A stretch of DNA of 64,000 nucleotides, from assembly GCA_951812775.1 (NCBI GenBank), contig OX638326.1:2553391-2617390 (forward strand). Direction: 5' to 3'. The position numbers and the translations under genes are program-made. The notes beneath the pieces were generated by a model. That model was given only the letters and a program-made list of their open reading frames with translations. It did not search any database and was not told the origin of the DNA. Source of the DNA: an uncultured Alphaproteobacteria bacterium (GTDB taxonomy: Bacteria; Pseudomonadota; Alphaproteobacteria; MPNO01; UBA2964). Of the stretch, positions 55,183 to 59,268 are shown piece by piece. Numbering within the stretch: the stretch's first letter is position 1; every line of letters begins with the position of its first letter.

Positions 55183-56823
55183 TTATGTACGGGGAACATC
55201 GCGGATTGAGGTGTTTGGTGCAACATCATTTCGCCGCAACTGGGCGCTGCGACGGCCATTTTCCATATAGCGCCCGTCAACCGCCCGCTGCGCCATCTCT
55301 TCCCATTCTTCAGACCAATCCCCAAGCGAATAACCGTGCCAAGGGCTCTCTGGCTTTAGCGGTGGCAGATCAAGGCTCTCCCACAAATCCTTGGCGCCCT
55401 CCATAAACTCTTTCGTCGGCAAGGCAATTGGCGGCATATCCGATTTGAGTGTCGCATTGATGAGCATGGTTCCGTCGAAACCATCGCCCCGTTCCAACGC
55501 CGGACCATGCCCACGATCACGATATTTCAGGATCTCAACGTCCAGGGCCGGATTGGCGCGATAGGCTAAAGCCCAAAACACGGCATCCCCCTGTTCAGGA
55601 TCAATATCCTCGTTGACCGCAATCACATACTTGCCGCAGGCAGAATCAAAACTGGCCGTGCCATAAAGCGCCCGCCAGATTTCAGTCGTTGGGACCCCAC
55701 GTTCAAAAACCAGAAACGCCAACCGCCGGATATTGGTCAGCGGCTCATGCAAGGAGACATGTTTTAGACCCTTGATACCAAGATGATCGGTCAGATGGTT
55801 GAGGAATTTCGGTTCCATCGCGACCCGCTTGATGACGCTCGATTCCGATGGCGTTACCTGCGAAATAATTGACGCCATGATGGCGTCCTTTCGGCGGGTG
55901 ATCGCGGTAACCTCAAAAACAAAGTTAAATTCTTCGAGATTAATATGGCCGTGACTCTCACCGAAGGGCGCTTCCGGCTCCAGCATTTCAGTATCCAGCA
56001 ACCCCTCGATGATGATGTCCGCATCCGCAGGGACCATCAGGTCAACCGTCTTTGCCTTAACAACGCGAATAGGCGCACCGGCGAGCGCACCGGCAACGGC
56101 GATCTCATCAACGCCTTCGCGAATTTTCTGTGGACTGACATAGGCAAGTGCCGGTGGACATCCCACCATGATCGCCATCGGCATTTTTCCACCGCGTGCC
56201 TTATACTTGTCCCAATGGGCGTGACCTCCCTGACGAAGATTGGCAAACATCTTCAAACCGATGCGGTCAGACGCTTTTATGCCACCGCGATAAGTCCCCA
56301 TATTCTGCACGCCGGTATCCGGGTCACGTGAGATACAGCTTGTTGCAGTCAAATAGGGCGCGACATCAAAACCGGGCGTTGAGATTGGCACCGGCAAAGC
56401 ATCAAGTCCCTTACCCTCACCATCAAGATCAGAACCGGTTAAAACGACTTCCTGGCAGGGCGCATCCTGAATCTCAACCGGCATTACCGGCGCCGCGAGG
56501 GCCTGCTTCCAATGTGCCCCGATCTCAGAAACCGGCACCCCCATGCCGATGCCATAGATTTCGGGTGTCGTCGCCATGGCACCAACGACCAGCGGAATGT
56601 CGTATTTGTTGCCGCGACTGTCAGTGACATTGTTGAAAAGGAAGGCTTTGCGCTGTGATTCAGGAATACCACCGCGAAATTGCCAGCGGACCAGCGGTTT
56701 TAGCTCGGTATCTTTATTGACCAGCGCATCAATCTCGTAGAGCAACCCGGCTTCTCTAAGCGTTTCGATATGGTCATGCAGATCGGGATATCCTCTGCCG
56801 CCATAGTTTTTGTTGTTAGCCAT
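55183..56823 (-). CDS. UbiD-family decarboxylase
   Basis: A 546-residue prenylated-flavin decarboxylase that reversibly removes CO2 from aromatic or unsaturated acids. The flavin- and metal-binding region is TSCISRDPDTGVQNMGTYRG near 162-181, and the catalytic Glu is in EPEAPFGESHGH near 284. The N-terminal start YPDLHDHIETLREAGLL is common in the family. The enzyme needs prenyl-FMN made by UbiX, which is not in this window. It heads the six-gene leftward operon with OB-fold, thiolase, molybdopterin, CoA transferase and hydratase genes. An acid that is carboxylated or decarboxylated early in a CoA pathway is the likely theme. Confidence 0.9.
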   Translation of the reverse strand: MANNKNYGGRGYPDLHDHIETLREAGLLYEIDALVNKDTELKPLVRWQFRGGIPESQRKAFLFNNVTDSRGNKYDIPLVVGAMATTPEIYGIGMGVPVSEIGAHWKQALAAPVMPVEIQDAPCQEVVLTGSDLDGEGKGLDALPVPISTPGFDVAPYLTATSCISRDPDTGVQNMGTYRGGIKASDRIGLKMFANLRQGGHAHWDKYKARGGKMPMAIMVGCPPALAYVSPQKIREGVDEIAVAGALAGAPIRVVKAKTVDLMVPADADIIIEGLLDTEMLEPEAPFGESHGHINLEEFNFVFEVTAITRRKDAIMASIISQVTPSESSVIKRVAMEPKFLNHLTDHLGIKGLKHVSLHEPLTNIRRLAFLVFERGVPTTEIWRALYGTASFDSACGKYVIAVNEDIDPEQGDAVFWALAYRANPALDVEILKYRDRGHGPALERGDGFDGTMLINATLKSDMPPIALPTKEFMEGAKDLWESLDLPPLKPESPWHGYSLGDWSEEWEEMAQRAVDGRYMENGRRSAQLRRNDVAPNTSIRDVPRT

Positions 56824-56961
56824 TTCTTCCTCAGGTAATCTTGATCAATCCTATAGTGCGCCTCGCGACCACCGGCAATCAATCACAAAGTAAATTTTTG
56901 TTTGTCGCAAAAATGCCTGCTTCATTATTAAATTCTTTGTTCTCTTTTTTAGTTGTTTACC

Positions 56962-56998
56962 GATTCGGTTTATGGTATTAGGTAAAGGGATTCGGTTT
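56962..56998 (+). repeat. Direct 10-bp repeat before Panacea-like gene
   Basis: GATTCGGTTT occurs at 56962-56971 and again at 56989-56998, 27 bases apart start to start, just before the first codons of the gene. An operator for self-regulation is possible; chance is not excluded for ten bases. Confidence 0.4.
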
Positions 56999-57464
56999 GC
57001 AAAAAAGTATTCATATGCCCGAGAATTTGTCGGCGAGAACTAAGCTCGTTCTCAGCGCTTTAGCATCAAGTAACGGTGCAGAATTTGCTCCCGTTCAAGT
57101 TCAAAAGTTATTTTTCTTGTTGGATGAGAACATCTCCGCCTCAATTGGCGGAAAACAGTTTGAATTTACGCCATATGATTATGGTCCTTTCGATCAAAAC
57201 GTATACCGTGAGTTAGAGCATCTTGAAAAACTAGGTTTTGTAAAAATTGAAAATCCAGATATGGCGTCTGGCCTTCGTAGATACTCCGTAAGCGCTGAAG
57301 GACAGAAGGCTGGAACCAAGCTTTTAAAAACCTTTCCGAAAGAAACCCAAGATTACATGTCAACAATTTCCGAATGGATTTGTGGACTATCATTTAGCCA
57401 ACTAGTTGGTTCGATTTACAAAGCCTATCCTAATATGCGCGTTAACAGTGTTTTTAACGACTAA
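56997..57464 (+). CDS. Panacea/YwgA-like protein, possible antitoxin or regulator
   Basis: A 155-residue protein of uncertain family. The pattern VQKLFFLLDENI, then FEFTPYDYGPFDQNVYRELEHLEKLGFV and LRRYSVSAEG, resembles the winged-helix-like Panacea (SocA/DUF4065) and YwgA-type proteins, several of which are antitoxins. It is not an exact match. Translation may start at TTG 56997 after AAAGGGA, or at ATG 57015 which lacks a good site. It faces a proteasome-like hydrolase gene that ends four bases into its stop region. The region is AT-rich (26 G/C in 57001-57060), unlike most of the window, which suggests a transferred pair. Confidence 0.5.
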   Translation: MQKSIHMPENLSARTKLVLSALASSNGAEFAPVQVQKLFFLLDENISASIGGKQFEFTPYDYGPFDQNVYRELEHLEKLGFVKIENPDMASGLRRYSVSAEGQKAGTKLLKTFPKETQDYMSTISEWICGLSFSQLVGSIYKAYPNMRVNSVFND

Positions 57465-58246
57465 GACTTTGGTGCTTTCGGCACATCACTTGCTTCGATT
57501 TTTCCTTCAAGTTGATCCTTGAAGGATGAGAAATATGCAGTTACTTCCTGAACCATATTTTCGTGTTCAGCCAACTCACTTTCTGATAGTAACTTTGCCT
57601 CAAACTGCCCCTTGTTTCTGCGTAAAACAGCTATTCGCTCTGGCCCCTTAATCCCTCCAGGATTCACCTCACAAGCATGCCGTAGAGCCCACAACGCAGT
57701 GAAGATTCCGCCCTGTAATTTTGGTGGACCGTCTCCCCAGAAAATTTCCCTAAATAGGGCAAGAAACGGGTCTGTAATTGCCTGCCCACTTCCGGCAGAT
57801 GCAAACCACAAATCATCTAGCTGCTTAATTTCAGGCTGAAAACCGACTGATCCGGGCAACTCACAAAGAGCTGTGGAGTTTTCGGCTGGATAAGCAACAA
57901 ATGCAGACATCGCTATATGAGCCAAATTTGCTATATGAGCCAAATTTTGCGGTATCATAGTTTTTGCGAATTCATTTACGCCTTCGCTCGACAGCAAGCT
58001 AGCAATTTCTAAGGCATTCTTATCTTTGAATTGTTTTTCTTTATAGAGTCGTGTCACTACATCGCAGTATCGTTGAGCATGACTAACATAGCCGGCGCAG
58101 GCAACAATTACGCGATCACCAACTATTTTAATCTTTTTCGCTGTGTTTTGTTCTATGGTTCGAATCTGACCGTCATCAAAAGTGGCGGAACTATCCGCAC
58201 CTATGACAACACCATCCCGACACTGAATTGCAACCAACGAGGTCAT
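57461..58246 (-). CDS. Stand-alone proteasome-type Ntn hydrolase
   Basis: A 261-residue protein that resembles 20S proteasome beta subunits. After removal of Met the chain starts Thr1-Ser-Leu, then CRDGVVIGAD puts Asp at position 17, and KK at 36-37 follows the NTA block, close to Lys33 of the proteasome. This Thr/Asp/Lys set is the Ntn active site. I therefore take ATG 58246 over 58261, because only that start gives an N-terminal Thr. No pore alpha subunit, HslU or ARC/Mpa ATPase gene is nearby. A six-residue repeat, NLAHIA twice, comes from an 18-bp tandem duplication at 57912-57947. Known stand-alone Ntn proteases exist; the substrate is unknown. Confidence 0.65.
   Translation of the reverse strand: MTSLVAIQCRDGVVIGADSSATFDDGQIRTIEQNTAKKIKIVGDRVIVACAGYVSHAQRYCDVVTRLYKEKQFKDKNALEIASLLSSEGVNEFAKTMIPQNLAHIANLAHIAMSAFVAYPAENSTALCELPGSVGFQPEIKQLDDLWFASAGSGQAITDPFLALFREIFWGDGPPKLQGGIFTALWALRHACEVNPGGIKGPERIAVLRRNKGQFEAKLLSESELAEHENMVQEVTAYFSSFKDQLEGKIEASDVPKAPKS
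57912..57947. repeat. 18-bp in-frame tandem duplication inside the Ntn hydrolase gene
   Basis: GCTATATGAGCCAAATTT at 57912-57929 is repeated exactly at 57930-57947. In the protein it gives NLAHIA twice in a row near residue 105. It keeps the frame. Confidence 0.9.
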
Positions 58247-58359
58247 TTCGCAAAAGACCAATCATTCAAAAAAATTCCAGTCTTTAGCTCATAACACGAT
58301 TCAAAAGAATCACGCGCAAAAAATCGATTTATTTTTTGGAATTACAACTAATAAATTCA

Positions 58360-59268
58360 TTATTTGCTTGTTTCGGTCGCTGCCTTCTTATTCACCCGTT
58401 CACGGTAGGAAATGATGGTGGTCGCCAGGACAATCGTAACCGCGCCAGCCCAGGTCCAGATATCGGGAATTTCAGAAAACGCTACATAGCCAAATATCGT
58501 CGCCCAAATCATACGAGTAAACACGATAGGCTCAGCAAAACTCAAATCGGCAATCGCATAGGCTTTGGCCGTAAACAAGTGTCCAAGGCTGCCAAGGGCG
58601 CCGATCGCTACCAGACCCAATAATTGCTCAAATGTCGGCCACTGCCAGTAGAACAGGGCGACAACGAGGGTAATGGGTGTCATCAGAAACTGGACATAGG
58701 CAGCGATGGTTGCCGGGTCCTCTGTCCTGGTCAGGCTCTTGGCAAAAAGTTTGGAAATCGCCGCCAATGCGGTCGCGGCAATCGCCAGGAGCGCACCGAT
58801 ATTTACCGCTTCAAATCCGGGACGAATGACCATTAATGCCCCGATTGCGCCCAGGATCAGCGCCGTCCAGCGCCAGATTCTGACCCTTTCCCCAAAAGCC
58901 ACCATGGCGCCCAGCGTTACAAATAAGGGACCGGTAAGATTTAGCGCCGTGGCATCTGCAAGCGGGATAAGCGACAGAGCCATAAACCAGCACAGCATCG
59001 ACATCGAGTTAATGCAGGCGCGAATGCTGTGAAACCCCAGACGTTTTGTCATGAACATCTTGGCACCGCCCTGCATTAACAAAGGCACCAGCACCAGGAA
59101 GCCAAACAGGTTGCGATAAAAGGCGATGACGAAAGGATGCAGATCGAACGAAACCAGCCGAACCGTGCCATGCATGAACGCAAATAATGCCCCGGCAAGC
59201 ACCATAAAAGCTGTCGCCATTACAGCGGGCGACGCAATTGCGGATGAATCTCCGGCGGGAGCGGCCAT
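58360..59268 (-). CDS. EamA/DMT-family transporter
   Basis: A 302-residue ten-helix permease. Repeat one starts TAFMVLAGALFAFMHGTVRLV and its signature is ADATALNLTGPLFV; repeat two shows IADLSFAEPIVFTRMIWA and TWAGAVTIVLATTII. The protein starts with a short Ala/Ser leader. It is upstream of nothing on its strand within 100 bases and is divergent from the internally deleted OYE gene at 59429. The gap of about 100 bases from the Ntn hydrolase start shows no clear promoter. Confidence 0.88.
   Translation of the reverse strand: MAAPAGDSSAIASPAVMATAFMVLAGALFAFMHGTVRLVSFDLHPFVIAFYRNLFGFLVLVPLLMQGGAKMFMTKRLGFHSIRACINSMSMLCWFMALSLIPLADATALNLTGPLFVTLGAMVAFGERVRIWRWTALILGAIGALMVIRPGFEAVNIGALLAIAATALAAISKLFAKSLTRTEDPATIAAYVQFLMTPITLVVALFYWQWPTFEQLLGLVAIGALGSLGHLFTAKAYAIADLSFAEPIVFTRMIWATIFGYVAFSEIPDIWTWAGAVTIVLATTIISYRERVNKKAATETSK

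What the first reader, a model, noticed from the sequence alone, without database searches (positions are those of the whole stretch)
56997..58246. AT-rich pair: Panacea/YwgA-like protein facing a stand-alone proteasome-type Ntn hydrolase
The two genes end toward each other in a stretch that is visibly AT-rich (21 G/C in 58021-58080, against 41 in a like sample of the IS). The hydrolase keeps the Thr1, Asp17 and nearby Lys pattern of proteasome beta subunits but has no alpha subunit or ATPase neighbour, and its partner resembles antitoxin-type winged-helix proteins. Such a pair could be a protease-based defence or control module. The active-site reading is seen in sequence; the pairing and function are inference.
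Basis: partly seen in the sequence, partly recalled or inferred. Interest (0 to 1): 0.65.

Follow-up and report, generated by a model that had tools for sequence, protein, structure and literature searches.

The report
Mobile two-gene cassette with proteasome-like protease
Two small genes, one encoding a proteasome-type protease and one a protein shaped like the part of a known antitoxin that blocks its toxin, travel together as a rare mobile unit through bacteria and phages, which suggests an undescribed protease-based toxin-antitoxin or defence module.

Summary
A 261-residue proteasome beta-type Ntn hydrolase (57461-58246, -) faces a 149-residue winged-helix protein (57015-57464, +) and their stop codons overlap. 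The pairing is real and strongly conserved. All 18 family members found by a hydrolase-only scan of genome contigs, and 4 of 4 in viral contigs, have the winged-helix gene directly 5' on the same strand, often overlapping the hydrolase start. The window's convergent layout is the exception. Thr1, Asp17, Lys33 and Gly47 are invariant in 24 of 24 intact pairs, and translation starts at the codon before Thr1. The predicted hydrolase matches 20S subunits (Z about 22). The partner's best fold match is the toxin-binding C-terminal domain of antitoxin DarG (Z 10.9 over 140 residues); Panacea is a weaker sequence match. The cassette is the most AT-rich stretch of the window. It sits between two genes that are directly adjacent in seven congeners, and relatives lie in prophages, beside integrases, or near type I restriction genes. 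Most likely this is a toxin-antitoxin-type or defence module with a proteasome-type protease effector. Toxicity, neutralisation and protease activity were not tested. A published survey of proteasome homologs reported no informative gene context, and I found no description of this pair.

The parts
57015..57464 (+). winged-helix protein, 149 aa, DarG-C-terminal-domain/Panacea-like; candidate neutraliser or adaptor (TTG at 56997 is an alternative, less likely start)
57461..58246 (-). proteasome beta-type Ntn hydrolase, 261 aa; start codon directly precedes Thr1; Asp17, Lys33 and Gly47 conserved; candidate effector protease
56890..58335 (.). approximate extent of the inserted AT-rich cassette (GC 0.41) between the UbiD-type and EamA genes; ends not mapped to the base
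57912..57947 (-). perfect 18-bp tandem duplication in frame inside the hydrolase gene (NLAHIA twice)
55183..56823 (-). flanking UbiD-type decarboxylase gene (name by sequence reading); its congeneric copies lie 63-103 bp from the EamA gene
58360..59268 (-). flanking EamA-type transporter gene (name by sequence reading)

Best explanation
The pair is a mobile, self-contained toxin-antitoxin-type module that probably serves phage defence or inter-element competition. The effector is a proteasome beta-type threonine peptidase made without a propeptide: removal of Met exposes Thr1. The first gene of the usual operon, a DarG-C-terminal-domain/Panacea-like winged-helix protein, binds the hydrolase and keeps it inactive, by covering the active-site cleft or blocking assembly. 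It is co-translated ahead of the hydrolase, so the inhibitor appears first. Loss or displacement of the inhibitor, for example during phage infection, would release proteolysis. Shown computationally: the strict pairing and gene order, the intact catalytic residues, the fold, the antitoxin-like fold of the partner, and mobility. Inferred: binding, inhibition, toxicity, trigger and substrate.
For: Hydrolase-only scan: 18 of 18 family members in genome contigs (L008-L024, L040) and 4 of 4 in viral contigs carry the winged-helix gene directly 5' on the same strand. No archaeal proteasome-beta locus from the same scan does at E <= 1e-3. Geometry: -3 (ATGA-type overlap) in 9 pairs, 0 in 2, +4 to +8 in 8, +16 in 1. 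Seven more pairs came from a winged-helix-first viral scan. Thr1, Asp17, Lys33 and Gly47 are invariant in 24 of 24 pairs, and the two proteins' distances correlate (r 0.73; 0 of 2000 permutations). Hydrolase model: pLDDT 86.7, Z 21-22 to 20S subunits, with model residue 2 on beta Thr1. Partner model: pLDDT 94.5; best match 7yk3 (DarG in the DarTG complex), Z 10.9 over 140 residues, next 9.3 over 89; PADLOC DarG 4e-7. DarG's C-terminal domain is reported to occlude the DarT active site (PMC11481870). Broken hydrolase with intact partner: L019, L023, L060, L063-065; no reverse case seen. Mobility: seven congeners have the flanking genes adjacent without the cassette; integrases, phage portal and terminase genes, and type I specificity genes lie nearby elsewhere.
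Against: No toxicity, neutralisation or binding data. In the window the genes are convergent, so translational coupling is absent here. The same winged-helix family also occurs without the hydrolase: fused to DUF488 (L056), alone (L055, L075), or duplicated (L071), so it is not specific to this enzyme. The hydrolase could need ring assembly for activity (as 20S beta does), which makes a simple free toxin less straightforward. Two accessory 20S positions near the active site (Asp166, Ser169) are not conserved. No PADLOC defence model convincingly matches the hydrolase. Neighbourhoods are mixed, many of them plain housekeeping. The broken-gene asymmetry is small in number and partly biased by the search (L060 and L063-065 were found by their winged-helix gene).
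Confidence: 0.5

Rival explanations
1. The winged-helix protein is a substrate adaptor or activator: it recruits specific targets (phage proteins, repressors) to the peptidase, giving an ATPase-free minimal targeted-proteolysis machine, as SocA delivers SocB to ClpXP.
For: SocA, a Panacea antitoxin, is a proteolytic adaptor for ClpXP (PMC8832971). Strict 1:1 pairing with a peptidase and no unfoldase. The partner carries a strongly conserved short C-terminal tail, YPxxxxNS[VI]F, of the kind that activators use to dock on peptidase rings (from general knowledge).
Against: The tail motif is also kept in family members without the hydrolase (L055, L071, L075, L076), so it is not a hydrolase-docking signature. 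The closest solved relative, DarG, works as an inhibitor. PanA proteins tested neutralised without ClpXP or Lon.
Confidence: 0.2
2. The winged-helix protein is mainly a transcriptional autoregulator, and the hydrolase does a non-toxic job for the mobile element or prophage, such as processing a phage or host protein.
For: Many winged-helix matches in the PDB are MarR/RosR-type DNA-binding regulators. Several copies lie near phage terminase, portal and head genes.
Against: The full-length best match is an antitoxin domain, while regulators align over only about 90 residues. The fixed gene order with stop-start overlap fits stoichiometric partners. Copies also occur outside phage structural regions (L014, L017, L022 and the window).
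Confidence: 0.15
3. The hydrolase is not a protease but a specific amidase or ligase like archaeal connectase, with the winged-helix protein carrying the target.
For: Proteasome-like homologs include the monomeric protein ligase connectase (PMC8665760). Asp166 and Ser169 positions of 20S beta are not conserved.
Against: The model has the first helix pair (54-69, 78-96), which connectase lacks (H1-H2), plus a long C-terminal helix. The best profile and fold matches are 20S subunits.
Confidence: 0.05
4. The window copy is an inverted relic with no present function, whatever the family does.
For: It is the only convergent copy; it has an 18-bp tandem duplication inside the hydrolase; congeners lack it.
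Against: Both frames are open and all catalytic residues are intact.
Confidence: 0.1

Closest known systems
20S proteasome beta subunit (peptidase family T1; PDB 1PMA, 1J2Q)
   Same: alpha-beta-beta-alpha Ntn fold, Thr1, Asp17, Lys33 and Gly47; Z about 21-22
   Different: No alpha subunit or ATPase gene beside it, no propeptide, long C-terminal helix plus proline-rich tail, only about 11-21% identity, Asp166 and Ser169 not conserved
Proteasome-like homologs of Fuchs et al. 2021 (WPH, Anbu, BPH, AAH and others; PMC8665760)
   Same: Stand-alone bacterial and phage beta-like subunits without propeptide or AAA+ partner; a C-terminal H5 helix is described for Anbu and coiled-coil contacts are predicted for WPH
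   Different: That survey reported no informative genomic context; here a winged-helix partner is strictly linked. Which of the 22 clusters, if any, this belongs to could not be checked
DarG C-terminal domain (DarTG toxin-antitoxin system; PDB 7YK3)
   Same: Best full-length fold match of the partner (Z 10.9, 140 residues) and detectable sequence relation
   Different: No macrodomain; paired with a peptidase instead of the ADP-ribosyltransferase DarT
Panacea antitoxins (SocA, PanA; PF13274)
   Same: Small winged-helix-like protein encoded with varied partners; weak profile matches in 13 of 23 members
   Different: Has GPF where Panacea has its GPV signature; the window protein itself does not hit PF13274; I found no proteasome-type partner in the main texts of the two Panacea papers searched
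HslV (HslUV)
   Same: Same Ntn family
   Different: Far below the HslV cut-off (16.8 of 157.75 bits); no HslU next to it; the host has a separate HslV-sized match

Membership tests
Proteasome-like (Ntn, T1) superfamily | N-terminal Thr nucleophile with Asp17, Lys33 and the Gly47 oxyanion hole | tested here: met
   Invariant in 24 of 24 intact pairs; PF00227 over its cut-off
Proteasome-like (Ntn, T1) superfamily | 20S-beta-type fold | tested here: met
   Z 21-22, Thr1 on beta Thr1
20S core particle | Encoded with an alpha subunit and AAA+ unfoldase | tested here: not met
   No such neighbour in the window; the genome's only other PF00227 match is a second locus with a 187-aa frame, HslV-sized
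HslV | Scores over the HslV equivalog cut-off and is linked to HslU | tested here: not met
   16.8 bits against cut-off 157.75; no HslU beside it
Fuchs 2021 named proteasome homologs (WPH and others) | Membership of one of 22 sequence clusters | not testable with these tools
   Cluster sequences and supplement were not available
Panacea (SocA_Panacea, PF13274) | Profile match over the curated cut-off | tested here: inconclusive
   13 of 23 members match weakly, best E 1.4e-4; the window protein does not
Panacea (SocA_Panacea, PF13274) | GPV signature motif | tested here: not met
   GPF in almost all members; GPV named as signature in PMC8832971
DarG C-terminal-domain-like fold | Full-length fold similarity to DarG chain of 7YK3 | tested here: met
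   Foldseek E 9.6e-5 and VIA Z 10.9 over 140 residues
Type II toxin-antitoxin module | Two small co-directional, overlapping or abutting genes, antitoxin usually first | tested here: met
   True of relatives, geometry -3 to +16 nt; the window copy itself is convergent
Type II toxin-antitoxin module | Toxin inhibits growth and antitoxin neutralises by direct binding | not testable with these tools
   Needs expression and binding assays
Anti-phage defence system | Protects against phage | not testable with these tools
   Only context: some copies near type I specificity genes or in prophages

The most novel reading that the evidence does not exclude
A previously undescribed mobile toxin-antitoxin or defence family whose effector is a stand-alone proteasome-type threonine protease, held in check by a DarG-C-terminal-domain-like inhibitor. 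It would be the first function suggested by gene context for a bacterial proteasome-like homolog outside HslV and the 20S proteasome.
Probability: 0.45. Interest if true: 0.8.

Novelty: new variant of a known kind. Interest (0 to 1): 0.64.

Why it matters
The published survey of 22 new proteasome-like families found no genomic context that hinted at function (PMC8665760). A strictly linked partner with an antitoxin-like fold gives one such lineage a concrete, testable function and would put a proteasome-type protease among toxin or defence effectors. It would also extend the partner swapping known for Panacea antitoxins to a protease.

Tried and rejected
Single-sequence scans of genome and viral contigs and tblastn against plasmids and phages found no hydrolase relatives; only alignment-based scans did. 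Canonical proteasome or HslV was rejected on score and context. The C-terminal NS[VI]F tail as a hydrolase-specific docking tag was rejected because partners without the hydrolase keep it. A conserved third gene was not found: neighbours differ from locus to locus. A PADLOC scan of ten neighbours gave nothing. A target-site duplication was looked for: a 9-bp direct repeat TTCATTATT flanks the cassette (56921, 58356), but a repeat of this length is not unlikely by chance in AT-rich DNA. Promoter scans did not exceed shuffled sequence and the terminator-like sites were within noise. The match of L004 was set aside as Anbu-type, judged by eye from its neighbours. MAG taxonomy of some loci (for example L022, labelled Paceibacterota but carrying sdh genes) is not relied on.

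Full report
What is there. The window (an alphaproteobacterial genome, single 4.15-Mb contig, G000; the class is inferred from its class-mates G144 and G617, whose loci coincide with named records L008 and L017) holds, at 57015-57464 (+), a 149-residue winged-helix protein and, at 57461-58246 (-), a 261-residue proteasome-type Ntn hydrolase; the stop codons overlap. The count of 21 G/C in 58021-58080 is exact, and the cassette (about 56890-58335, GC 0.413) is the most AT-rich stretch of its length in the window. Pfam gives Proteasome for residues 2-84 (6.7e-10). The hydrolase is single copy; a separate PF00227 match, HslV by its length, lies elsewhere in the genome.

The cassette is inserted. 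In seven of the eight congeners held, the flanking UbiD-type and EamA genes are adjacent, 63-103 bp apart, with no cassette. A profile of the hydrolase family finds it in only 2 of 337 genomes of the class, the window's among them; the single-sequence search found 2 of 385. A clean insertion of a two-gene, 1.45-kb, low-GC segment is what a mobile cassette leaves. The exact ends were not resolved, and the flanking 9-bp repeat is weak evidence.

The pairing is conserved. The closest homolog in the class sample (36% identity) had the same small gene directly upstream, as did the next, beside an integrase. A scan of genome contigs with the hydrolase alone then gave 17 clear members plus one divergent one (L040), and a scan of viral contigs four. 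Every one has the winged-helix gene directly 5' on the same strand (in L024 it is cut by the contig end). Of 20 measurable junctions, 9 overlap as ATGA-type starts, 2 abut, 8 are 4-8 nt apart and one is 16 nt. The archaeal proteasome-beta loci brought in by the same scan have no such gene. Searching viral contigs with the winged-helix profile added seven further pairs. Hosts by record title include Alphaproteobacteria, Chloroflexota and Solirubrobacteraceae. The distances within the two families correlate (r 0.73, none of 2000 permutations reached it), although shared ancestry contributes to this. The window is the one copy in which the hydrolase is turned around.

The enzyme. In all 24 intact pairs compared, Thr1, Asp17, Lys33 and Gly47 are invariant, Ser129 is kept in 22, and Asp166 and Ser169 vary. 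The start codon (ATG or GTG) directly precedes Thr1, so there is no propeptide; removal of Met would expose the nucleophile (Met removal is general knowledge). The AlphaFold2 model (pLDDT 86.7) matches 20S subunits at Z 21-22, with model residue 2 on beta Thr1, and a profile search ranks 20S beta subunits first. A 29-residue C-terminal helix (222-250) and a proline-rich tail are added. Whether it forms a ring is unknown.

The partner. The model is confident (pLDDT 94.5). Its best fold match is the DarG chain of the M. tuberculosis DarTG complex, 7YK3 (Z 10.9 over 140 residues); other winged-helix proteins align over about 90 residues. Profile matches agree: PADLOC DarG 4e-7 and NCBIfam DarG 6.7e-4, both in the C-terminal part, and PADLOC's candidate PDC-M19A 2.8e-12. 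Weak SocA_Panacea matches occur in 13 of 23 members, but the GPV signature of Panacea is GPF here. DarG's C-terminal domain is reported to block the DarT active site (PMC11481870). The family also swaps partners: one member is fused to DUF488 (L056) and others stand without the hydrolase (L055, L071, L075).

Context. Relatives lie in prophage or phage contigs near terminase, portal and head genes, beside integrases (L014, L017), near type I specificity genes (L013, L049), near a true Panacea gene (L010), or inserted singly into housekeeping regions, such as next to the succinate dehydrogenase flavoprotein gene (L022). No third gene is conserved. Four independent loci keep the winged-helix gene while the hydrolase is broken (L019, L023, L060, and the near-identical set L063-065), and no reverse case was seen. 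This fits a harmful hydrolase but rests on few cases, some of them found through the winged-helix gene, and assembly errors are possible.

Reading. I commit to a toxin-antitoxin-type or defence module in which the winged-helix protein restrains a proteasome-type protease (confidence 0.5). Pairing, order, catalytic residues, folds and mobility are shown by computation; inhibition, toxicity, trigger and substrates are inferred. The main rival is an adaptor role, for which SocA is the precedent. In the library of papers available I found no description of the pair, and the 2021 survey of proteasome homologs states that no informative context was found. That library lacks most subscription papers and all bioRxiv preprints, so novelty is provisional.

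Noticed in passing
57912-57947: Perfect 18-bp tandem duplication (GCTATATGAGCCAAATTT) in frame inside the hydrolase gene, not seen in the aligned relatives.
   Followed up: partly
L056:1465-2376; L055: The same winged-helix family fused to DUF488 (L056), and a near relative (L055) with no hydrolase beside it but a possibly DUF488-like gene upstream (by eye; Pfam gave no match); PADLOC's PDC-M19A may be such a fusion.
   Followed up: partly
L022:4771-9576: The pair sits between the succinate dehydrogenase flavoprotein gene and what reads as the iron-sulfur subunit gene, inside an apparent sdh operon; the MAG label Paceibacterota looks doubtful for this contig.
   Followed up: partly
L010:9663-10289: A true Panacea-domain gene (PF13274, 1.8e-17) about 1 kb downstream of a hydrolase pair.
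   Followed up: no
L071:4980-6211: Two winged-helix relatives in a row in a viral contig, without a hydrolase.
   Followed up: no
   Followed up: no
window, whole genome: Very large expansions of the EamA transporter and UbiD-type families: at least 30 matches each in the host genome.
   Followed up: no
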